From Saccoglossus kowalevskii (Eukaryota > Hemichordata > Enteropneusta > Harrimaniidae): a DNA stretch of 40,951 bases. The stretch's first letter is position 1, and the number at the start of each line of letters is the position of its first letter. This document shows positions 10,332 to 40,951 of the stretch, piece by piece. The notes under the pieces are model-generated. The model made no database searches and had not been told where the DNA came from. It saw nothing but the letters and a program-made list of their open reading frames with translations. The position numbers and the translations under genes were made by a program. The stretch covers positions 574,094 to 615,044 of the forward strand of contig NW_003158724.1 in the NCBI RefSeq assembly GCF_000003605.2, written 5' to 3'.

Positions 10332-11290
10332 AATTTAATCACAGTCCCTCTATCATTGTGATTTAACCACTGTCCCTCCATCACCTGTGATTTAACCACT
10401 GTCCCTCTATCACCTGTGATTTGGCCACTCAGGCCCTCCATCACCTGTGATTTAACCACAGGCCCTCCATCACCTGTGATTTAACCACTGTCCCTCCATC
10501 ACCTGTGATTTAACCACTGTCCCTCTATCACCTGTGATTTAACCACTGTCCCTCTNNNNNNNNNNNNNNNNNNNNNNNNNNNNNNNNNNNNNNNNNNNNN
10601 NNNNNNNNNNNNNNNNNNNNNNNNNNNNNNNNNNNNNNNNNNNNNNNNNNNNNNNNNNNNNNNNNNNNNNNNNNNNNNNNNNNNNNNNNNNNNNNNNNNN
10701 NNNNNNNNNNNNNNNNNNNNNNNNNNNNNNNNNNNNNNNNNNNNNNNNNNNNNNNNNNNNNNNNNNNNNNNNNNNNNNNNNNNNNNNNNNNNNNNNNNNN
10801 NNNNNNNNNNNNNNNNNNNNNNNNNNNNNNNNNNNNNNNNNNNNNNNNNNNNNNNNNNNNNNNNNNNNNNNNNNNNNNNNNNNNNNNNNNNNNNNNNNNN
10901 NNNNNNNNNNNNNNNNNNNNNNNNNNNNNNNNNNNNNNNNNNNNNNNNNNNNNNNNNNNNNNNNNNNNNNNNNNNNNNNNNNNNNNNNNNNNNNNNNNNN
11001 NNNNNNNNNNNNNNNNNNNNNNNNNNNNNNNNNNNNNNNNNNNNNNNNNNNNNNNNNNNNNNNNNNNNNNNNNNNNNNNNNNNNNNNNNNNNNNNNNNNN
11101 NNNNNNNNNNNNNNNNNNNNNNNNNNNNNNNNNTATCACCTGTGATTTAACCACAGTCCCTCCATCACCTGTGATTTAACCACTGTCCCTCTATCACCTG
11201 TGATTTAACCACTGTCCCTCCATCACCTGTGATTTAACCACTGTCCCTCTATCACCTGTGATTTGGCCACTCAGTCCCTCTATCACCTGC
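10332..11290. repeat. 29/31-bp minisatellite, interrupted by gap
   Basis: Tandem units run on both sides of a gap: about 224 bp to the left and 157 bp to the right. The basic unit is 29 bp, containing GTGATTTAACCACTGTCCC and then TC(C/T)ATCACCT. A longer 31-bp variant reads GATTTGGCCACTCAG and occurs once in each flank (near 10419 and 11259). Variable positions are mainly C/T in TC(C/T)ATC and TG/AG before CCC. Open frames through the array are artefacts of the repeat and the gap. Confidence 0.95.
10556..11133. other. Assembly gap (578 N)
   Basis: A run of undetermined bases begins and ends inside the same minisatellite, so the gap is a collapsed or unresolved repeat. Its N count may be an estimate of length rather than a measurement. 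Confidence 0.99.
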
Positions 11291-13032
11291 GTTTTAAAAT
11301 ACATATACACTTTGTGGTTTTCATGCTCTCTCTCAGCAATCACAGAATCTGTTTACTGTCAGGTGATAACCGCAGACACAGTCAGCTTACTGATCATTGA
11401 ATTCTGTTATTCCAAGGTGTTTTTTAATATCAGCTCAACGATCTCATCTTGGCATGCATTTTCCTCTGTAGAGGACCATAAATTGTCATGAAATATGGAT
11501 ATTTATTGTCTTTACCATCTGTATGCCACAGACTACCTGCTATAAATTATGTGCTAACATCTTGTGAAGATTGCTCAGTGACATGTGTTTTATAGCATGT
11601 GTTTGTGTCACATTGCGCAATAAATCAACATACTGCTAAGTAATGTGTTCTGGCTAGGTCTCTTCTGGCGCTATTTAGTAGGTGACTGATTCCCAGTTTA
11701 CAAACAAATTCTACTTAGTCCCACTGTAGCTTTATTATATTCATCTGCCTTAATGGGTTTTTCATATATTATTTACTTGTTTATTTAATTTACATTCAGA
11801 TATCACATACAGGAAATATTTTACAATATATTATATTATATAGTTATGGGATTTGAAATTTAGTTTATACATGTACATGTACAAATTTATGTTAAACAAA
11901 TTAGTAATAATAATCAAGGTAGAACGCTAAACATAATAAATAAATAAATATTTGGTATGTCAAAGATGAAGAAAATAAATTAAAATTATGAGGTGATCGT
12001 TCCCAATTTAGATAATATCGACTAATAAAATACAATGAAAATAGAATGTTTTGTCTGTTTTAGGATATTTTACCATTGTTTTCTCCAGCTAAAATATATA
12101 TAAAAATTTGCTTGGTGACATTCATTGTATAAAATATATGATATTTTTTATATATTTTACCGCTTTTCTCAAAAAACAGTTTGACAGTGACTGTTGACTA
12201 ATACCAAATAAATTAATTGTAGACGGATTTTGACTCAAATCAATTTTGCAAAGAATTTGCATTTCTTCTATTTTACACAAGTCAAAACTTATATCTGCAT
12301 GCATAGATGGTTGGAAGACAGATACGTTAAGTGCAATCCTGGCTGTCAAAGCTTTCACAATTGTTTAACTCTCATGAGTATGGCGTGACAGGTTTGGGGT
12401 CTGAATCCAGAAGCAGTCAACTTGGCTCCACACAAGGAAATTCAATAAAGTTAGCAAGATGTTGCCTAATGCTGATCAGATTGCATACAGTCAGACAAGA
12501 AACTGGAAAGCTTCAGCCTTCCATTGTCTGGATTACTATTATTTACCAATTTTTATTATTACTCAAAAAATAAATTCATTTTCTTTTATTGCTCCAATTT
12601 TTGAGGGGCTTCACCTTATTTTTAGAAAAATTAGCTTTAACTATTGTGTAACACAATATTTTGTAAATAGTTGCATACTAACATAAAAAAATATTTGTAG
12701 ATAAAAGTAGAGACAGAGAACAGTAATTTCACTGTTTTTTTTTTTATATTTAATGATTTATACCTTCATTGATACTATTACAATTCCAAGTGACAAGTAG
12801 AAAATGTACATTATCAGCTACATATGGAAAATGTCAACATGTTTGAATACAGCTGTGATTTTATGAAGTGATAATGAACTTGGCAATTGTATTTTTACTT
12901 CATAGTGCATGGCAGTGCACCTGACCTTCACTGATTTGAAATGACACTTGATGTATGCTGGGTCAGTGGTGAGACTATGATTCAAAATTCAAGCTATGTG
13001 ACCCACATGTTTGTGTATGCAACCTCATTAGT
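11291..13032. other. Non-coding block
   Basis: AT-rich DNA with no supported exon. Two overlapping TACATGTA palindromes occur at 11868 and 11874, amid A/T-rich low complexity (11760-12180). Two overlapping short + frames at 12331-12686 show no domain, splice pairing or start context worth calling. Confidence 0.6.
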
Positions 13033-19308: not shown

Positions 19309-19520
19309 TACTGTAGAATACTTTATTTTCGCTTGGAATTTATTTTCGCTATTTTCGCTGAAGGGATGATTTCGTGAAAATAAAATCCAGCCAATATACT
19401 GTTTTTCCTATATTTCACATTAAACTCATCAAAAATCAGTGAAAATAAATTACATACAAAACGCCCAAAAAGCCTTTTCAGCGAAAATTAATTCCAGCGA
19501 AAATAAAGTATTCCACAGTA
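19309..19520. mobile_element. 212-bp MITE with ~40-bp inverted ends
   Basis: The left arm begins TACTGTAGAATACTTTATTT and the right arm, read on the other strand, begins TACTGTGGAATACTTTATTT. The arms match over roughly 40 bp, including TTCGC blocks. It starts and ends with TA and is flanked by TA, consistent with a TA target as in Tc1/mariner-like elements (inference). The interior has no coding capacity. A split copy lies at 27617-29753 and a fragment at about 22720-22800, so this is a local multi-copy family and the intact copy serves as its reference. Confidence 0.85.
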
Positions 19521-22500: not shown

Positions 22501-22801
22501 CTGCTCAGTGCTTGTTTATTTGTTTGGAATTTATTGTCTCCTGAATTCTCTGTAGCAAAATGAATATCCAATTCTCAATGTTTGAAATTTTGTACCTGGT
22601 GCTCAGTTGTTTTGTACAGCCCCCTGACATTTTGTTGTTTTCATACTTTGCTTGTAAGACAATCTTTTCTCTATGTAATGTATTTCTAGAAGCTTTTGAT
22701 ATTTGAGTTGATTTTTACAAACACTTTATTTTCGCTATTTTCATCAGAATGTTAAATTGAAGTGAAAAAAGTTTGTTTTTGCTAATTTTATCATTCAGCA
22801 C
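19521..22801. other. Non-coding block
   Basis: No supported exon. It contains a G8 run (20031-20038) and several A-rich stretches (20150-20170, 21640-21660, 21860-21980). The open frames at 20436-20648 (+), 20911-21144 (minus) and 22389-22571 (minus) show no domain. Confidence 0.55.
22720..22800. repeat. Decayed fragment of the 19309 MITE
   Basis: ACACTTTATTTTCGCTATTT resembles the left part of the intact MITE at 19309. The fragment ends where the TTAA-flanked element at 22802 begins, so that element probably inserted next to or into it. Confidence 0.45.
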
Positions 22802-24224: not shown

Positions 24225-24655
24225 CTGACAGTGAACCATGCAATAGAGGAAACACAAACTTTTATATGGGCGTATCCACTAACAATGTTCATTGCATTGC
24301 ATAATAGAGGGGTCGACCACAAACATATACATGGACGTACCCTCTGACAATGAACTGTGCATTGCATAATAGAGGAACCGAACACATACTTTCACATGGG
24401 CGTAAGCACTAACAATGTTCACATTGCATTGCATAATAGAGGGGCCGTACACAAACATATACATGGACGTACCCTCTGACAATAAACTATGCCTTGCATG
24501 ATAGAGGGACCGACCACGTACTTTCACAACGACTTACACACTAACAATGTTCATTGCATTGCATGATAGAAGGACTGTACACAAACATATAATGGATGTA
24601 CCCTCTGACAATAAACCATGTCTTGCATGATAGAGGGATTGTACACAAATACATG
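24225..24655. repeat. Two-type ~65-bp tandem array with ~130-bp higher order
   Basis: Monomers begin GAGG at 24246, 24307, 24372, 24439, 24504, 24569 and 24633, spaced 61-67 bp. Two types alternate. One contains TTTCACATGGGCGTA, then CACTAACAATGTTC. The other contains ATATACATGGACGTACCC, then TCTGACAATGAAC. Both end TTGCAT(A/G)ATA. Like types are 126-132 bp apart, so the array has a dimeric higher-order unit. The two overlapping minus-strand open frames here are by-products of the repeat. Confidence 0.9.
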
Positions 24656-26774: not shown

Positions 26775-26846
26775 AGACTTGTCTTATAACCGTATCAGCA
26801 TTATACAGCCTGGTGCATTTGAAGGACTCAATTCACTCAAGAAATT
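26775..26846 (+). CDS. ADGRA3: ADGRA exon: leucine-rich repeat (LRR2 equivalent)
   Basis: A 72-nt exon between TTTTCAG and GTGAGT. One base completes the previous codon, then 23 codons, then TT carried to the next exon (phase 2 to phase 2). The peptide reads DLSYNRISIIQPGAF, then EGLNSLKKL, a textbook 24-residue LRR (LxxNxIxxIxxGAFxGLxxLxxL). It corresponds to the second LRR of human ADGRA3 by position and by the PGAF motif. The preceding LRR exon must end in two bases that with A give the codon before Asp, probably Leu TTA. LRRs of this ectodomain form the N-terminal ligand/partner-binding solenoid. Confidence 0.93.
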
Positions 26847-27184
26847 GTGAGTCATTATTTTTGTATTTTATGCTGTCAACTTTTGAACACCATGATGTTT
26901 GACCTACCAATGTTTTGCAGCAATATTTTTACATGTAATATGTATTTTTTGATAATTTCTTTGTTACGTTTCATGTTTGAACTCACTTTGATCAACATTT
27001 AAAAAAACAAAATTAAAAAAATATATTTTGTGTGGTTTAATGCACAACAATATCATTCAGACTGTTTACATAATGATTGTTTTCATTTTCCTATTTCAAC
27101 ATAAATCATTTCAACCACTAGAGGGCACTGTTCACACGACTCATCCTTAATCCTGTGTGGTGTGTCTGTCTGTGTGTATCTGTC

Positions 27185-27188
<4 letters not shown>

Positions 27189-27217
<29 letters not shown>
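27189..27217. repeat. (TG)n microsatellite
   Basis: A pure TG run of about 14 units, preceded by interrupted TCTG/TGTG units from about 27163. Confidence 0.95.
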
Positions 27218-27219
<2 letters not shown>

Positions 27220-27220
27220 A

Positions 27221-27470
27221 AAATCTCAAAAACTTCTGAGCAGATTTTGATTAAATTTGGAACATAGGTGCCTTCGGATAAAGCATAGCACAGACATGAT
27301 TAGTTTTGGAGCCTTGACATCTAGTGCATATTATTTACATATTGTTTATTTCAACCTACATGTATATAAACAAAATCTCAAAAACAACTTCAGAATAGAT
27401 TTTGATCAAATTTGCAAAATATTGGTGCTGAACATTTGCTGACTGAGAATCCTAACCTCTAATGCCATTT
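27221..27470. repeat. Imperfect ~148-bp dimer
   Basis: AAATCTCAAAAAC and GATTTTGATTAAATTTGG near 27222-27260 recur as AAATCTCAAAAAC and GATTTTGATCAAATTTGC near 27369-27415, and both halves end in TCTA(A/G)TGC. The CTCAAAAAC/CAAATTTGG wording resembles the internal units of the AGTCCC elements (27696 and 39854), so this may be a distant relative. Confidence 0.6.
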
Positions 27471-27695
27471 CTACTTTACTGACCGTTGGGAATTTTCATT
27501 TCCTTGATATGTTTTTATAAAACAACAATGCTTGCATATATTCTGTATTCACACTAGAGCTTTGTAGAGTTTGATTTGAAAATGCTGCTTATACTATCTA
27601 GAAGAGGCATCAAAACTAATGTAAAATACTTTATTTTCATTTGGAATTATTTTTGTGGAAGGAATGTTTCAGAGAAAATAAAACCCAACCTTTTT

Positions 27696-29650
27696 AGTAC
27701 CCGTCCGAAAACTGGGTTTTACAAGTATGGATTGACATCTGTGTGTGCATCTGTATGTGCATCCGGACCTATATCTTAGACATGCCTGGACCGATTACAT
27801 TCAAACTTCACACATACAGGGATCTCGCCAGCCCAACGTGAGTGCCGGTCGGTCATGAATATTAATGAGCTATATGAATATTAATTAGCAATGAATATTA
27901 ATGAGTTCGGTCGCAGTCGCAAATATTTTTGGAATTAAGACATTATGTTTCACAATTTAGAAGAGTTTGAATTTAAAAATTAAATATATTCGAAATGCGA
28001 ATGCTGCAGACTAAAAAACAGAAACAAATAAATTATTGTTGCAATATCAATGTCTATTGTAAAAAGTTAAATAAAACGCATTTGAAACGTTTCAGCCAGG
28101 AATATTTTCACGATCTTATTTACCCCAAATACATTCTCTTTCAAAAAATCGACCACGTAATTATTTGGAGTATTGTTGTAATTTATTATTCGTACAATCA
28201 ATTTCTAAAACGTATATATTCACAGTAATGAACGAACAAATAAAACTTCCGAACTTTCAAAGTTACGACGTGACATAACTTACTTCGTGATGTTATACAC
28301 CGATTATACCAATAATTCCTCTTACTCAGTCATGATGCCAAGCAAAATTTGTTTTTTTTTGATAAGAAATAAAAGTGAAATTTGACTTAGTTTTATCAAG
28401 AGTGGATATTTTTGATCACTTGATCGCTTCGGTAAAAAACACAGCCCGCCATGATGTTTGTGACGTATTAGTTGATCGGCATGTGTCCTTTGACCCGATG
28501 GGTCAATAATTCCATTAACCAATCAGAATGCCGCATGGTAATGCCGATAGAATCCGAAGTTTTCCGAATGGTAGCGATCAGAAAAATTACATTGCAGAAG
28601 TAAAGCAATGTCGTAGCACGATGTGTTGACATCGATTTCAGTTGAAAACTGCACGATGGTTATCGAAAGAGGTGATTAGCAATTTTTAAAAGGTAAAATA
28701 GGTCTTGAAAGAAGAGTATTTACATGAATCGCGATGATACCAGTTCAAATGTATTTTACCAAATCACGCAATAAACACGTTGATTTTTTTCTTGAGTAGC
28801 GTAAACTGTCAGATCGTGAACTCCGCTTTGACCCACACGCGCTTTGACCATGTTATATCGGGGTGAAATTGATTTTGAAAGAATTTTAGCTTTCAATCTA
28901 AAGAATGTGTTTATCACAGAAAGTATTTACTTACAAACAAAGAGGTGCTAATTTCACAAAATTGACTAGCCGCTACGTATCATGCGACTAGGTTTATTGT
29001 TTACAAATTATAATCCATGACTGACAGGATGCGTGTCAGTCAGTACATAATTATAATAACAATCGAACAATAGTCCTGGTCGGAAGCATTTCCGTGGTGG
29101 TCGCTAATTTTGAGTGCCGGTCGGGGCCGACCACCGCCATGGCGAGATCCCTGCCCATACATAATATTATACATATGCACATAAATATGTTTCACGATTT
29201 GATTCAAGATGGCAGAATGACGGCCATTTTTGTGCTGAAAAATCATCAAAATCAAGCATTTCTGGCATCCCCCAATCGAATCTTGGCTGTTTACAGATGG
29301 ATTTTGTTCAAACTTGGTACATACACAGGACATTACTGCATGTCATTTTGTTTTTCAGATAAGATTCAAAATGATTGACTGGCGGCCATTTTGCTTTAAT
29401 AAATGCAGTTCTAGAGCCATACATGACTGATTATGTTCAAATTTTATATATTCATTATACATCATGTCATAGATACACAGATGTATTGGTTTGATGATCC
29501 GATTCAAAATCATTTTGTTATAATTAATGCTGTTCCAGAGCAGCTTCTGGATCCATATCTGACACAGTTTATGTTCAAACTATATTACTCTAAACAAAAC
29601 TATATATCTTAAATTTGATAACTAACAGGGACTATGCCATGCATGGCTTG
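27696..29650. mobile_element. AGTCCC-type element, copy 1, itself interrupted
   Basis: 27696-27816 and 29154-29650 together match the element at 39854-40659. Shared parts include AGTNCC at the start, GTCCGAAAAC, a CATCTGT(A/G)TGTGCATCC-like tract, GGACCGATTACATTCA, repeated units with GATTTGATTCAAGATGGC and GGCCATTTT, and a terminal AACAGGGACT followed by GCCATGCATGGC and TTG. It is inserted in the MITE copy, with TTTT on both sides as a possible target duplication. The 5' hairpin is shortened. No coding capacity or known class is recognised. Confidence 0.78.
27817..29153. mobile_element. 1.34-kb element with 14-bp perfect inverted ends
   Basis: CAGGGATCTCGCCA at 27817-27830 is exactly complemented by TGGCGAGATCCCTG at 29140-29153. 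GAGTGCCGGTCGG occurs just inside both ends in the same orientation (27840 and 29112). Near the left end ATGAATATTAAT occurs three times (27855, 27874, 27891), and a GTCGGGGCCGAC palindrome lies near the right end. CAGGG termini suggest a hAT-type element (inference). The 8 bp expected as target duplication are CACATACA/CCCATACA only if a CA is taken to be lost at the left junction. No transposase frame is recognisable, so it is non-autonomous. Confidence 0.8.
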
Positions 29651-29753
29651 TTTTCTATAGTTTACATTCAGCTCGTTAAAAATCAGTGAATATAAATTCC
29701 GTACAAATACCCAAAAAGTCTTTTTAGCGAAAATGAATGTGATATGGTCAGTA

Positions 29754-32691
29754 TTTGTAAATTGACAATGAGTTCTTACATTTTATTATTACCAGTACTA
29801 TAAACTCAAGGTTTCCACGTTTCTGAATCAATAATTTCACAAGAAATACATCGGATTATTTTCACATTTGGCAACTCATACACATATGACTGTCATAGAA
29901 CTTGTTTATATTATTTGGTTGTTTTTGAGATTTCACTGTTTCTACCTTGGTATATTTTCGAGTGTATTTGTTCACATCGTGGTCAATTGATTACATTTTT
30001 GAAAAGCCCCTTGTTGCTACTTGAAATAGTCATCAAACAATCAATCACCTATTTATTTGATTGATAAGGATGTACCTCATTAATTATCATTTAACTGTTC
30101 ATATTAGTTTTATTTAATTGCTCTCCATAATTACTGAGGCGAACATCACTAAATGAAATACTATAGAAACCATAAACTAAAATTTATAGCCATTTTAATT
30201 TTCTTTAAAGACTTAAAACACAATGGAAACATAAAAACTATATTAAATCTATTTTTTAGGAACAAGGGCAGTAAGATTATTACTTGATAACTGTTTTTTT
30301 TTTAATGACAATACATCTATATAAAAGAATGAAGCTAAATGTTAAAAACAGATCTGTTCTCAGTGTTGATCTCTTTTATTGCCCTCAAGTGTTTTTTTGT
30401 ATTTGATTAAATATATGCTAATATATATCTATGCTAATTTATACAAATAGCATCAATTTATAAAGCAGAAGTCATCTTTTATTTGTACAGAAACTAATCT
30501 CACAGCTGGTCAATCTGGTTAAAATAAATATGTATTGTGCAAGCTAGACTGCGAGATTTATTGTAGATTTCACAATAAACAAAAACATAAGGCAAGAGAG
30601 AAAAAATGTCAAACAATAGATCTTATTTTAATCAGATTGTCATCTTTATGGACGTTGACATAGCAACAATAATGCCAGGTCCTGACATTAAAGGTAGTCT
30701 TTTAGCCCAGGATGAGAAGAAATTTGTACATAGTAACAACAGACTATAGTAAATATATAGGCAACATACAAGTCAGTTTAAAACTTTTAACATCAAGTCT
30801 AAATCCAATGCACTTGGCAATTTTCATTTGATCAACTGTTTTGATGCGAGTCTTCTACATGTATCTGTGATATTAATACGTTGTGTCAAATTCCTCATAT
30901 GCTGATTTCCCCTGGAAGTTGGATCCCAAAAAATAATAATATAGAAAGAAAGATACTACAAGTAGAAATACTTCTTGTCCTGTATTTTTGTCAAAATATA
31001 CCTATCAGTTTATGAAACATGTGCCAGTCAACTAGATCTACTCTGTATCTGTCACTAAGGATACTTAAATTGTATACAAAATATCACCAGTTCTGGCAAT
31101 TGATCCATTTGTTTGTTTGTATTCTATGGTATTCTGTCAAAGTACCATTATCATTTATTTCCCATGAGTGTATAAAAGTTCATAATTTATTTTGAAATTA
31201 CTCATGCTTCGTAATTATTTGATACCCATCCAAATCTGGGGCAGGTCATAAACTGGACCAGATGACAATGGCATTTGACATACCCGTAAACACTTTCTTC
31301 AATATTGTAAACCATTTAATTTTTGCTGCTAGTGATTTCCATGATTTGATTATTAAAGGCATTTGTGAAGACAAATTTTGGTAAATGTCAGTACTCAGTG
31401 AATGTAGGAAAAAAAGTCACAGAAAAAAAACAAACATATGTAACAAATGTTTTACATATCGATAGCAACCAGTTTTTAGAAAGGCAAGCTAGTAAATTCC
31501 AATTGATGTGTCATTATTGAGGAGCATTTTGCCATTCTTGATGAATCACTATTGCTTGTTATTAGAAAATATTGATGGCATTATTCTCAGTATATCCGAA
31601 CAAATGGCCAACAACATTGCCCTTAGTCTGTACTAACCACTGTTTTCTAACATGCGTGAATGCTATTGGGTCTAGCCGATATGCAAATATATGAGATTAG
31701 ATTTAATCTTATCCCGTACTTGGTGTAGCCTGAACATGACTATAGTCACACACGGGTTTGTCCCCCTTGTCCCCCTTGATGAAACTGTTAAGCTTCTTCA
31801 CTGCAAATTACTGGTGTGTCCTTTTATCCTGTGCACCATTGTACACTTCAGAGAAATTGTCACTGCTGCAAAATTTTGCAATATTCACTGACTCATGTAA
31901 ATTTGTCTCTTGCAAATCAGTTTACAGTAGCTTTACCATATTCTGTTAGAAACATATATGCTTAGGTTCAGTTTACATTTAGTGTGCTTAAAATTCCACT
32001 AACATTTCATGTGTCTCTACTGAAGATGCACTCTTTTAAATACAGCAAATATAGTATGTCAATTTAGTAAATTCGGCCTCAAAACTGATTTATTATCGTC
32101 TTGATTGGTGAAATACACATTTTGCCTGCATTTTATGCTTTACAGAAAGTATTATACTGTATTTGTCAAAATAAGTAACATTTTAATGATTCAATATACA
32201 ACAAATGTAATTTACAGTTTATATGTGCTTCTGTTGGAGCAAATATGGCATATGTACTTAGAGAGGAAACAATGTCGCCGTATCCGTTTGCTATTACAAT
32301 CTGTTTTTTGAAATTCAAGATGACACATCTTATAAATATATAAATTTGTATTCATTCAAAAAATACACACAGTACAGTACAGACATGTATTTTCAAATTC
32401 ACCATGGCAACTGTTGCTAAGGTCAGTAATAATAGAGAGATATAAAGATGATACATAAAGCGAAAGTTGATACATGTGTGAAATGAGCGTGTATGTTGTC
32501 ATCCGTAATATCCAGCTTATTATGTTTTGATGCGCTGTACGTGATTCTCTGCACATATATGTCAAGTACCCTGCGATAGAAATAATGTACCAGATGGTCA
32601 GTACTAATAAATTTGTTTCAAAATGCCACATTATATATATTTACTACATTGTTTTGGATAATAACCACATTTTATGTGCTTTCACCTGTAG
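29754..32691 (+). other. Intron, distal part
   Basis: About 2.9 kb AT-rich intron sequence ending in a pyrimidine/ACCTGTAG acceptor. It has a TACATGTA at 30856 and a diverged copy of a local dispersed repeat at 32200-32265. No exon is supported; open frames around 31691-31949 and 32105-32311 overlap each other in different frames and look random. Confidence 0.75.
32200..32265. repeat. Dispersed repeat R2, copy 1 (diverged)
   Basis: ATATACAACAAATGTAATTT and GGAGCAAATATGGCATATG correspond to GTATACAACACATGCAATTT and AGAGCAAATACGGTATATG in the copy near 35650. The similarity is partial. Confidence 0.5.
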
Positions 32692-32763
32692 GGATTTATC
32701 TGGTAATAGACTTGGTAGTATCAACAGTAGCATGTTTTCTGGACTTGATCGCCTTGAAAGATT
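32692..32763 (+). CDS. ADGRA3: ADGRA exon: leucine-rich repeat (LRR3 equivalent)
   Basis: A 72-nt exon between ACCTGTAG and GTAAGT, phase 2 to phase 2. The first base G with TT of the previous exon gives Leu (TTG). The peptide reads DLSGNRLGSINSSMF, then SGLDRLERL. Hydrophobic positions and the Asn of the LRR ladder are in place; Met replaces the common Ala/Thr before the Phe. It corresponds to the third LRR of human ADGRA3 (NNRIG..N...F.GL). It is separated from the previous LRR exon by a 5.8-kb intron that carries the nested mobile elements. The reading frame is intact despite the shortness of the exon. Confidence 0.93.
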
Positions 32764-34784: not shown

Positions 34785-34856
34785 AAATCTTTCCGACAAC
34801 CAGATAGCTACTATTCCTCAAGGCACGTTCAATTCCCTGAGGAACTTAGACATTGT
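34785..34856 (+). CDS. ADGRA3: ADGRA exon: leucine-rich repeat (LRR4 equivalent)
   Basis: A 72-nt exon between TTATTTTCAG and GTGAGT, phase 2 to phase 2. The first base A with TT of the previous exon gives Leu (TTA). The peptide reads NLSDNQIATIPQGTF, then NSLRNLDI, with a final split codon GT|T (Val) shared with the LRRCT exon. The QGTF motif matches the last LRR of human ADGRA3. An alternative donor two bases earlier would break the frame, so 34856 is the exon end. It is the last repeat of the solenoid and is directly capped by the LRRCT module of the next exon. Confidence 0.93.
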
Positions 34857-37651: not shown

Positions 37652-38384
37652 GTAAGTGAATAAGAAATATTTGAGTTACAAACAGAAAAATTAAAAAATT
37701 GAAAATTGATCTCTTTCAGATATTTTATTTATCTGCTGTTTGAGTCAAAAACTACAATATGTGTTTCATTCAGTGCTTTAATATGATGTTATTATCATCT
37801 TATATCACACACTCTTATAGATTAGTTTGGAAATGAACCAAATTGCTTTCATTCAGTCAGCAAAAAAAAAGTTACAGTACACACTGAAGGAAACAGAGCT
37901 TTTAAAAGCAATAATTCAGAATCCATCTTGAACTAGCTCACCATACATTAAATCTATCTGACAAGCAACCCAAACATCGATTTATGGATTTTACTATTAA
38001 TATTTGTTGGTGGGCACATGCTTGTCTTGGCATTAACTTCTACGCAATTTACTTCAAGGTATCCACGCAGAATATTGTATACAAGAATAACACACCTCAA
38101 ACAATGGCTGTTTCTGAACACGTGATCCATTCCAAATTCCAACTCATACTCATAGAAAACAATAACTCTTTTAAATCTAATATCTTGTCATGTTACGGTA
38201 TACATTCATGATGTTGTTGTACACAACTATCTTGTTATTGCAAACATGACAAATGCTCTCCATAATATGATGTTTGCACACGATATTAGGAAGCATGTAC
38301 AAACCTTCTACATTTTAACTTTAATATAAAATATTAATTCTTTAGGACATTTATAATAAAAATACTCGTATTTCAAATTTTCAG
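37652..38384 (+). other. Intron between LRRCT and Ig exons
   Basis: Begins GTAAGT and ends CAAATTTTCAG; 733 bp. No repeat, element or coding signal was seen. The two short frames around 37954-38211 overlap on opposite strands and are chance. Confidence 0.85.
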
Positions 38385-38753
38385 ACTATCCTTTGGAGCT
38401 GCCCGTGTTTGACTTGTCACCTCTTAACAATCAAGTTGTGTTTCTTGGTGACACATTGCCAATGACGTGCATGGCAACTTACCTCGATGAGTCTACGAGA
38501 ATGTCATGGTTTAAAGACTTGAAAGAAGTCAAACAAAACGCATCTGCAGGAATTGGAGTAGAGGAACACATATCTCGTGATAGGTCCATAATAACAAGCA
38601 AGTTGATAGTACATAACTTAGTGATGAGTAATGGTGGTTTATGGGAATGCCGTGTGTGGACGTCAAGAGGAAATGACTCGCGTGCTGTCAGTATAATCGT
38701 TTTAAAAGATAGTGCTGAGTTTTGTCCAAAGGAGAGCACCTCAGATAATAAAG
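38385..38753 (+). CDS. ADGRA3: ADGRA exon: immunoglobulin domain
   Basis: A 369-nt exon between AATTTTCAG and GTAATT, phase 1 to phase 1. It encodes about 123 residues. The first Ig cysteine is in LPMTCMATY, the core Trp in RMSWFKD and the second cysteine in GLWECRVW, spaced as in an I-set Ig fold. It opens with PLELP and closes with SAEFCP and DNKG, both as in ADGRA2/3. Possible N-glycosylation sites are at NAS and NDS. A single Ig domain after the LRRCT is diagnostic for the subfamily. In vertebrate ADGRA2 the LRR/Ig region mediates the RECK partnership (established knowledge). The symmetric 1-1 phase is typical of a mobile Ig module. The donor lacks the +5 G (GTAATT), so it is weaker than its neighbours. 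Confidence 0.95.
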
Positions 38754-38908
38754 GTAATTGATCTATAGAGGGCACATTTTATAACATAGAGGGCGTACTT
38801 TATCATTAATCATGATTATGAGATTATTGTTTCTTTTCTCTGTCATTTATTTATTATCATCGGAAATGCTAAATAGAAATTTGTTGATAATTGTTATTTC
38901 ACTTTCAG
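38754..38908 (+). other. Short intron between Ig and HormR exons
   Basis: 155 bp, the shortest intron of the gene; begins GTAATT and ends TTTCACTTTCAG. It holds a two-copy motif, ATAGAGGGC at about 38765 and 38787. Confidence 0.9.
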
Positions 38909-39111
38909 GCACTATATCATGGCCATTGACAGTTGCTGGTATAAAATCATATCGTCTTTGTCCGAGAGGTGCTGGTAGTGGATATACAGGTGTACCTGGT
39001 AAACCTTCAGCCAGCAGACAGTGTAACATAAATGGTAACTGGGAAGTACCAAACACATCTGATTGTCAGTATTTTAGTACTGATACCAAATGGTTAGAAG
39101 ATTTATCCTTG
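38909..39111 (+). CDS. ADGRA3: ADGRA exon: hormone-receptor (HormR) domain
   Basis: A 203-nt exon between CACTTTCAG and GTAAGC, entered in phase 1 and left in phase 0. About 68 residues carry SWPLTVAG, a Cys in SYRLCPRG, another in SRQCNING followed by NW, and a third in TSDCQYF, ending KWLEDLSL. The W-P-x-T-x-AG opening, the three cysteines and the NW pattern fit the short HormR domain of ADGRA2/3, which also has fewer cysteines than the class B hormone-receptor version. NTS before the last Cys is a possible glycosylation site. In adhesion GPCRs the HormR sits directly before the GAIN domain, as here. Confidence 0.93.
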
Positions 39112-39433
39112 GTAAGCTAAACCCTCAATCTTCTCACCACCAGTTCCTTTTTTTCATCACAAATGAGTCCCATTTATAGTCTGCTCTTTCCTTCAGAAGT
39201 AAAAAAACCACATTTTTTGAGTAAAAACTAAAAATTGACTTAAATTGTGTCCAAAATTATGGTTCATTTCCAGAAATAATGCAGAATTTAAGAAAAAAGT
39301 GCAGACAAATTTGGTTGAGAGAGTCTGGTGGTGATGAGGTTAGCCTATTGGTACTTCAACATGACCTGTATGTAATTCTAAAATAGTGCCTAGGTACATG
39401 TATTGAGTATTAATTTGAATTTTTCATCCACAG
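39112..39433 (+). other. Intron between HormR and GAIN exons
   Basis: 322 bp from GTAAGC to TTTTCATCCACAG. One TACATGTA lies at 39395. Nothing else was seen. Confidence 0.85.
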
Positions 39434-39853: not shown

Positions 39854-40659
39854 AGTCCCTGTTCGGACGAAGTCCGAAAACGGGGACTTATAATTCGGTC
39901 TGCGTCCGTGCATCTGTGCGTCCATGCGTCCGTCCGGAGTCATATCTCAGAATCCCTTAGACCGATTACATTCATTCTTTGCATGTGCCCAGTACTTTAT
40001 GTGGGACATATGCATATGCAGTGGTTTAGCGATTTGATTCAGAATGGCCCACTGACAGCCATCTTGTTTTTTGAAAATGTTGTATTTTGGACATGCTTTG
40101 TCAGTTGTCATTCAAGCTTGGTACATAGATTATACATGTCAGGATACATGTTCATGATGATTTATTTCACAATTGGATCAAAGATGGTCGACTGGCAGGC
40201 ATCTTGTTTTTTTTTATGTGGTATCTTGGACGTGCTCTGTCAGTTTTCATTTAAATTTGGCACATATATGTACTTTATACATGTTAGGATGCATGTCCAT
40301 GACAATTTGTTTCAAAATCTGGTCAAGGGTGGCCAATTGACAGGCATCTGACTTTTTGGCCTTACTACTATATTTCCACAATTTATGTACCATTTTCATT
40401 CGTATTTGGCACATACATCATACATATCAGTGTGTTTCATAATCTGATCAAAGATGGCCGAATAACGGCTGTTTTTATTTTTGGCCATATTACTACTACA
40501 CGTAACACGTGTTTTGATGTAAATAAACAATGTGTTGTATACGCCACTTGGAACTCAAGTTTCAAGGACATGCTTGCGACAACCCCTCCGCTTTAATATG
40601 ACGAGCACAAAGAGAACTTTCAAAAATTTAACGGGGACTGTGTCATTTTCAATGACTTG
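39854..40659. mobile_element. AGTCCC-type element, copy 2 (uninterrupted)
   Basis: The 806-bp element opens with a hairpin: AGTCCCTGTTCGGAC, loop GAA, then GTCCGAAAACGGGGACT. A CGTCC-rich tract follows, then four units of about 125-145 bp, each with a TTGGCACATA-like motif and TC(A/C)AAGATGG(C/T)CGACTGGC (units near 40030, 40171, 40316, 40440). It ends in GGGGACTG, a GTCATT/AATGAC hairpin and TTG. Flanks TTATT and TTATA may be a target duplication. No transposase or reverse transcriptase is recognisable. The 204-codon + frame across it (39737-40351) is not a gene. Confidence 0.78.
40642..40656. repeat. Terminal hairpin of the AGTCCC element
   Basis: GTCATT and AATGAC pair around TTC. At the same place in copy 1 (29636-29647) the stem reads GCCATG/CATGGC. 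A T-A pair has become C-G on both sides, so the structure rather than the sequence is kept. Confidence 0.65.
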
Positions 40660-40735
40660 TTATAAATATAATTTGTTACTAAATATTGTCAGATTGAAAC
40701 TTTTTGTTCAGGGGATAGTCACCTGATAATAGTGA

Positions 40736-40951
40736 TAATGTAAGACTGTCAATGAACCAATCATGTTACTAGAAAAATATCACATGGTATGAAGATAGTC
40801 AAATGTCAAACTTTCCATGAACCAATCATATTGCTAGAATAACATCACATGATATGAAGATAGTCAAATGTCAAACTGTCCATAAACCATCATATTGCTA
40901 GAATAATATCACATGATATGAAGATAGTCAAATGTCAAACTGTCCATAAAC
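40736..40951. repeat. 65-bp tandem array, runs off the window
   Basis: Units contain GTCAAATGTCAAACT(T/G)TCCAT, AACCAATCATATTGCTAGAA and ATCACATGATATGAAGATA. Unit starts are at about 40735, 40800, 40865 and 40929 (spacing 65, 65, 64). The last spacing is shortened by loss of one base in ACCAATCAT. At least 3.3 copies are visible and the array continues beyond 40951. Confidence 0.93.

What the first reader, a model, noticed from the sequence alone, without database searches (positions are those of the whole stretch)
27617..29753. Three-level nested transposon insertion in the LRR2-LRR3 intron
A MITE related to 19309-19520 is split by an AGTCCC element related to 39854-40659, which is split by a 1.34-kb element with 14-bp perfect inverted ends. 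Both outer families have an uninterrupted relative in the same window, so the order of insertion can be read directly: MITE first, AGTCCC element second, CAGGG-ended element last.
Basis: seen in the sequence. Interest (0 to 1): 0.7.

Follow-up and report, generated by a model that had tools for sequence, protein, structure and literature searches.

The report
Three nested transposons in one intron
An intron of an animal receptor-like gene holds three decayed, apparently non-coding transposons stacked one inside another; the stack is real but made of ordinary kinds of element.

Summary
Both split elements align collinearly to uninterrupted relatives in the window: in five pieces tested, 0 of 500 dinucleotide shuffles each reached the observed score, and freely chosen breakpoints fall within 4 bases of the element ends. 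The nest lies between two 72-bp LRR exons.

Identities added here. The middle element has the layout of a HINE (non-autonomous Helentron). The outer one is a TA-ended MITE. The inner one belongs to a dispersed family: 21 of 21 loci examined hold at least 1 kb of it in a 572-Mb genome. There a 6-bp target duplication is typical (perfect in 6 of 14 copies with both ends recognised, 0 of 182 mismatched pairs), not hAT's usual 8.

Five HINE copies at four other loci run through the inner element's site without it, so it is an insertion. In one search (40 of 4608 candidates scored) only the window's own locus spans the nest, so 'MITE, HINE, inner element' is the best reading; arrival of a ready-made composite is unlikely, not excluded. 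Against: this copy's own duplication is doubtful (all five empty sites fit better without one). Ordinary for transposon-rich introns.

The parts
27617..27695 (+). left part of the outer MITE with the T-run 27691-27695 at the insertion point
   Evidence: 27617-27690 aligns to 19309-19395, 62 of 73 aligned columns identical, 0 of 500 shuffles
29651..29753 (+). right part of the outer MITE, ending in CAGTA; lacks 13 bases near its end in the alignment to the intact copy
   Evidence: 29655-29753 aligns to 19396-19520, 71 of 83 aligned columns identical, 0 of 500 shuffles; gaps
27696..27816 (+). left module of the middle HINE-like element (degenerate AGTCCC end, 12-bp microsatellite 27736-27763)
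   Evidence: 82 of 104 aligned columns identical to 39854-40000, 0 of 500 shuffles
29154..29650 (+). right module of the middle HINE-like element: degenerate repeats, 3' subterminal repeat 29624-29633, palindrome 29636-29647, 3' end TTG
   Evidence: matching 3' end in L010 and L024
27817..29153 (.). inner 1,337-bp element with 14-of-14 terminal inverted repeats CAGGGATCTCGCCA
   Evidence: dispersed family in the genome
27839..27852 (+). TGAGTGCCGGTCGG, direct repeat with 29111-29124 inside the inner element
   Evidence: repeat D15
29111..29124 (+). second copy of TGAGTGCCGGTCGG
   Evidence: repeat D15
19309..19520 (+). uninterrupted MITE of the outer family, 212 bp, 25-nt TIR 96% complementary, TA at both ends
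39854..40659 (+). uninterrupted HINE-like element of the middle family
   Evidence: 5' hairpin 39854-39888 and 3' hairpin 40642-40656; microsatellite 39901-39933 and 145-bp repeats 40044-40349
26775..26846 (+). 72-bp LRR exon upstream of the intron with the nest
   Evidence: AG/GT borders; LRR_8 E 9.9e-06, 25.7 bits, below the cut-off of 27
32692..32763 (+). 72-bp LRR exon downstream of the intron with the nest
   Evidence: AG/GT borders; LRR_8 E 0.0023, below the cut-off

Best explanation
Three successive insertions of non-autonomous DNA transposons in one intron. A TA-ended MITE (probably moved in trans by a Tc1/mariner-type transposase) came first. A HINE, a non-coding Helentron relative that by published accounts belongs to the rolling-circle elements, then inserted in the T-run in the middle of the MITE. 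Last, a 1.34-kb non-coding element of a dispersed family that makes 6-bp target duplications inserted between the HINE's left module and its first repeat. Shown: nesting, boundaries, HINE layout, dispersal and 6-bp duplications of the inner family, empty sites for the inner element, no Pfam match in the inner element. Inferred: the enzymes that moved each, and that the inner element came last at this very locus.
For: Collinear halves, 0 of 500 shuffles for each of five pieces; breakpoints within 4 bases of the element ends; uninterrupted relatives in the window and elsewhere. HINE traits from PMC4067079 and PMC7492417 (passages) in the intact copy: 5' hairpin, 1 of 200 shuffles as good, and 3' hairpin, 9 of 200; GTCC-type microsatellite and ~145-bp repeats; insertion between Ts. 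Inner family: 21 of 21 loci hold at least 1 kb of it; 6-bp duplication perfect in 6 of 14 and at least 5 of 6 in 9 of 14 copies, against 0 and 2 of 182 mismatched pairs. Five HINE copies pass through the inner site without it. Only the window's own place spans the whole query.
Against: This copy's own 6-mers match 5 of 6 (CACATA/CCCATA), but all five empty sites fit better with both flanks kept whole than with one 6-mer removed (by 15 to 32 points), so its duplication may be a chance effect of CATA repeats or be masked by a small deletion; an earlier test with a candidate 8-mer and six references in the window was split 3 to 3. Five of 14 copies of the family show no duplication of 5 or 6 in 6. 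The nested HINE is decayed: own subterminal repeats 7 of 10, palindrome with 50 of 200 shuffles as good, microsatellite not GTCC-type, no array of ~145-bp repeats found by TRF. Subterminal repeats in the intact copy are 10 bp with 9 matches, shorter than the published 11-12.
Confidence: 0.88

Rival explanations
1. The HINE already carried the inner element when it entered the MITE, so this locus saw two events, not three.
For: Nesting alone cannot exclude it; PMC7492417 says that rolling-circle elements tend to capture and spread other sequences (passage). This copy's target duplication is doubtful.
Against: No other place matches across both junctions with both HINE arms (40 of 4608 candidates scored; a composite should rank high, by inference). 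Two further elements of the inner family inside HINEs sit at other points (L010, L024). Five copies of the HINE lack it at this point.
Confidence: 0.07
2. The inner stretch is original HINE sequence lost from the relatives, and its inverted repeat is a coincidence.
For: This copy's target duplication is doubtful; four other groups of 14-bp inverted repeats lie in the window.
Against: The same sequence with the same ends lies in many other flanks, with 6-bp duplications.
Confidence: 0.01

Closest known systems
HINE (Helentron-associated interspersed elements), including Cg_HINE of Crassostrea gigas and the Pearl family of bivalves
   Same: subterminal inverted repeats with a 5' complementary repeat, GTCC-type microsatellite, ~145-bp central repeats (published 140-180), 3' palindrome, insertion among Ts (PMC4067079, PMC7492417: passages)
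   Different: 10-bp subterminal repeats; nested copy decayed; not compared by sequence with any published HINE
TA-ended MITEs of Tc1/mariner type (recalled)
   Same: 212 bp, 25-nt TIR, TA at both ends
   Different: no transposase partner sought; split copy has deletions
hAT superfamily, non-autonomous members (recalled)
   Same: CAG...CTG ends, short TIR; relatives with a similar interior have CAGTGTTCTCCC ends
   Different: target duplication of 6 bp, not the canonical 8; no transposase match in this copy

Membership tests
HINE / Helentron | subterminal inverted repeats, 11-12 bp or more | tested here: inconclusive
   intact copy 9 of 10, nested copy 7 of 10, nested 3' against intact 5' 10 of 10; shorter than published
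HINE / Helentron | 5' inverted repeat complementary to the subterminal repeat | tested here: met
   39854-39889 folds at -12.3 kcal/mol, 1 of 200 shuffles as good; 12 bases of it are missing in the nested copy
HINE / Helentron | microsatellite and central repeats of about 140-180 bp | tested here: met
   intact copy: TGCGTCCG x4.1 and period 145 x2.1; no such array reported in the nested copy
HINE / Helentron | palindrome near the 3' end | tested here: met
   intact copy 9 of 200 shuffles as good; nested copy has GCCATGCATGGC but 50 of 200
HINE / Helentron | insertion in TT or a T-run without target duplication | tested here: met
   TTTTT/TTTT in the nest, TT/TT at the intact copy, nothing beyond Ts shared
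HINE / Helentron | autonomous Rep/helicase partner in the genome | not tested
   no search was made for it
Tc1/mariner-type MITE | terminal inverted repeats | tested here: met
   25-nt arms, 96% complementary
Tc1/mariner-type MITE | TA target duplication | tested here: inconclusive
   TA stands at both ends of both copies, but it could be part of the TIR; no empty site examined
hAT | 8-bp target duplication | tested here: not met
   0 of 14 copies match at 7 or 8 of 8; 6 bp is the length that stands out. Not filed as hAT
hAT | transposase or remnant | tested here: not met
   no Pfam family at E up to 1 in six frames of this copy; expected for a non-autonomous element

The most novel reading that the evidence does not exclude
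HINE repeats are favoured landing sites for this 6-bp-duplicating family: three of the 21 loci examined have a member inside a HINE (the window, L010, L024), and two of these (the window and L024) sit about 13 bases apart at the start of the repeats, with different ends and opposite orientation, so as separate events.
Probability: 0.12. Interest if true: 0.4.

Novelty: new member of a known kind. Interest (0 to 1): 0.24.

Why it matters
It is a clean small example of how introns grow by stacked insertions of different transposon classes, and it orders the activity of two, probably three, families in one genome. If HINE repeats do attract other transposons, abundant Helentron repeats would act as insertion sinks; the present sample cannot show that.

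Tried and rejected
Fourth level: a 16-bp inverted repeat (27373-27388 and 29918-29933) flanks the nest, but the next base differs on both sides and the flanks share no evident duplication (by eye); probably chance.

An 8-bp target duplication for the inner element (7 of 8 with one end shifted by 2; 328 of 20,000 random position pairs do as well, and 568 of the 20,000 scored 0, probably at the N gap): dropped once the family showed 6 bp.

Age from divergence: not attempted. Relatives in other collections: three patterns in viral contigs, 0 loci each; plasmids, no match; six end sequences, 0 papers; Rfam, 0 in 27000-30500. Paper listings gave nothing that I used. The joined alignment left out 27695 and 29651-29659 and matched the middle element's 3' end out of register; one search replaces it.

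Dropped rows: of 21 copies, seven with more than 3 mismatches at an end were left out of the duplication count. Three of these have CAGTGTTCTCCC ends; their flanking 6-mers are identical in 2 of 3 (L024, L028) and L027 shares 5 bases. One counted copy, L021, matches 7 of 7. Loci L002-L008 overlap L009-L015 and were not counted apart.

Full report
Observation. The stretch and its two relatives were read directly. BLAST of the pieces against the window gives the expected matches.

Strength. Five pieces were compared with their counterparts and with 500 dinucleotide shuffles each; none of the shuffles reached the observed score. The narrowest margin is the middle element's last 40 bases (76 vs 69). 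Two control comparisons were at chance (494 and 222 of 500). The aligned identity of the controls (74-75%) is about that of the weakest piece (74%), so identity by itself proves little here.

Junctions. Scoring all breakpoints in a range without use of the inverted repeats gives 27815/29153 for the inner element (tied with shifts down to 27812/29150) and 27698/29650 for the middle one (tied with two neighbours). The excised length, 1,337 bp, equals the distance between the outer ends of the 14-of-14 inverted repeat.

The genome. The window's own genome has 572 Mb in 4,830 contigs. A search with the whole nest gave 66 matches; 40 of 4,608 candidates were scored. Only the window's own place spans the query. 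The others are mostly copies of the inner element. I fetched 20 of these places. With the window's own locus, all 21 hold at least 1 kb of the inner element; the flanks printed are mostly unlike each other.

The inner family. In 14 of 21 copies both ends are recognised. The 6 bases on either side are identical in 6 and match at 5 or 6 in 9, against 0 and 2 of 182 pairings of left and right flanks from different copies; lengths 4, 5, 7, 8 and 9 do not stand out. Relatives with a similar interior have CAGTGTTCTCCC ends at both sides in three loci, with identical 6-mers in two. So this is, by inference, a cut-and-paste type family with 6-bp duplications. It looks hAT-like by its ends (recalled), but it is not filed there, because the duplication is not 8 bp and no transposase was matched in six frames of this copy.

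Empty sites. Five HINE copies at L010, L014, L020 (two) and L025 run through the point where the inner element sits. Against this, all five fit the window's flanks better when both are kept whole, with one single-base gap, than when one 6-mer is removed (by 15, 22, 24, 24 and 32 points). The window copy's own duplication (CACATA/CCCATA, 5 of 6) is therefore doubtful; the HINE here is rich in CATA. An earlier test of an 8-base candidate against six references in the window was split 3 to 3.

The middle element. Its intact relative has the published HINE layout (PMC4067079, 12 of 19 places shown; PMC7492417, 12 of 13): 5' subterminal repeat with complementary repeat (hairpin, 1 of 200 shuffles as good), GTCC-type microsatellite, repeats of 145 bp, 3' subterminal repeat and palindrome (9 of 200), Ts at both sides. 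The subterminal repeat is 10 bp with 9 matches. The nested copy is decayed (7 of 10; palindrome 50 of 200). L010 and L024 match the same 3' end.

The outer element. 19309-19520 has 25-nt inverted ends and TA at both ends. L018 and L023 hold MITE sequence that reads across the insertion point; L027 lacks 23 bases there.

Setting. Three 72-bp exons with AG/GT borders (26775-26846, 32692-32763, 34785-34856) match LRR_8 at E 9.9e-06, 0.0023 and 0.0012, all below the curated cut-off, as single 23-residue repeats may. An Ig domain and an HRM domain are encoded at 38360-38761 and 38785-39120. This fits an adhesion-GPCR-A-like gene (recalled).

Order. The MITE preceded the HINE here. The inner element entered a HINE, most simply this one and last. 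Two other elements of the inner family sit in HINEs at other points (L010 in a repeat; L024 about 13 bases on from the window's point, opposite orientation, other ends). The sample was ranked by likeness to a query that holds HINE sequence, so it cannot show preference.

Noticed in passing
L024:944-2493, L027:953-2434, L028:1012-2510: relatives of the inner element with CAGTGTTCTCCC ends in place of CAGGGATCTCGCCA: a similar interior with two kinds of ends.
   Followed up: partly
27373-27388 and 29918-29933: 16-bp inverted repeat flanking the whole nest, probably chance.
   Followed up: partly
22719-22736: 18-mer with 2 mismatches to the MITE end; possible fragment of another copy.
   Followed up: no
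10333-11297: 29-bp minisatellite with 578 N (10556-11133) inside it.
   Followed up: no
24251-24649 and 40729-40951: two tandem arrays of 65-bp period with different consensus units.
   Followed up: no
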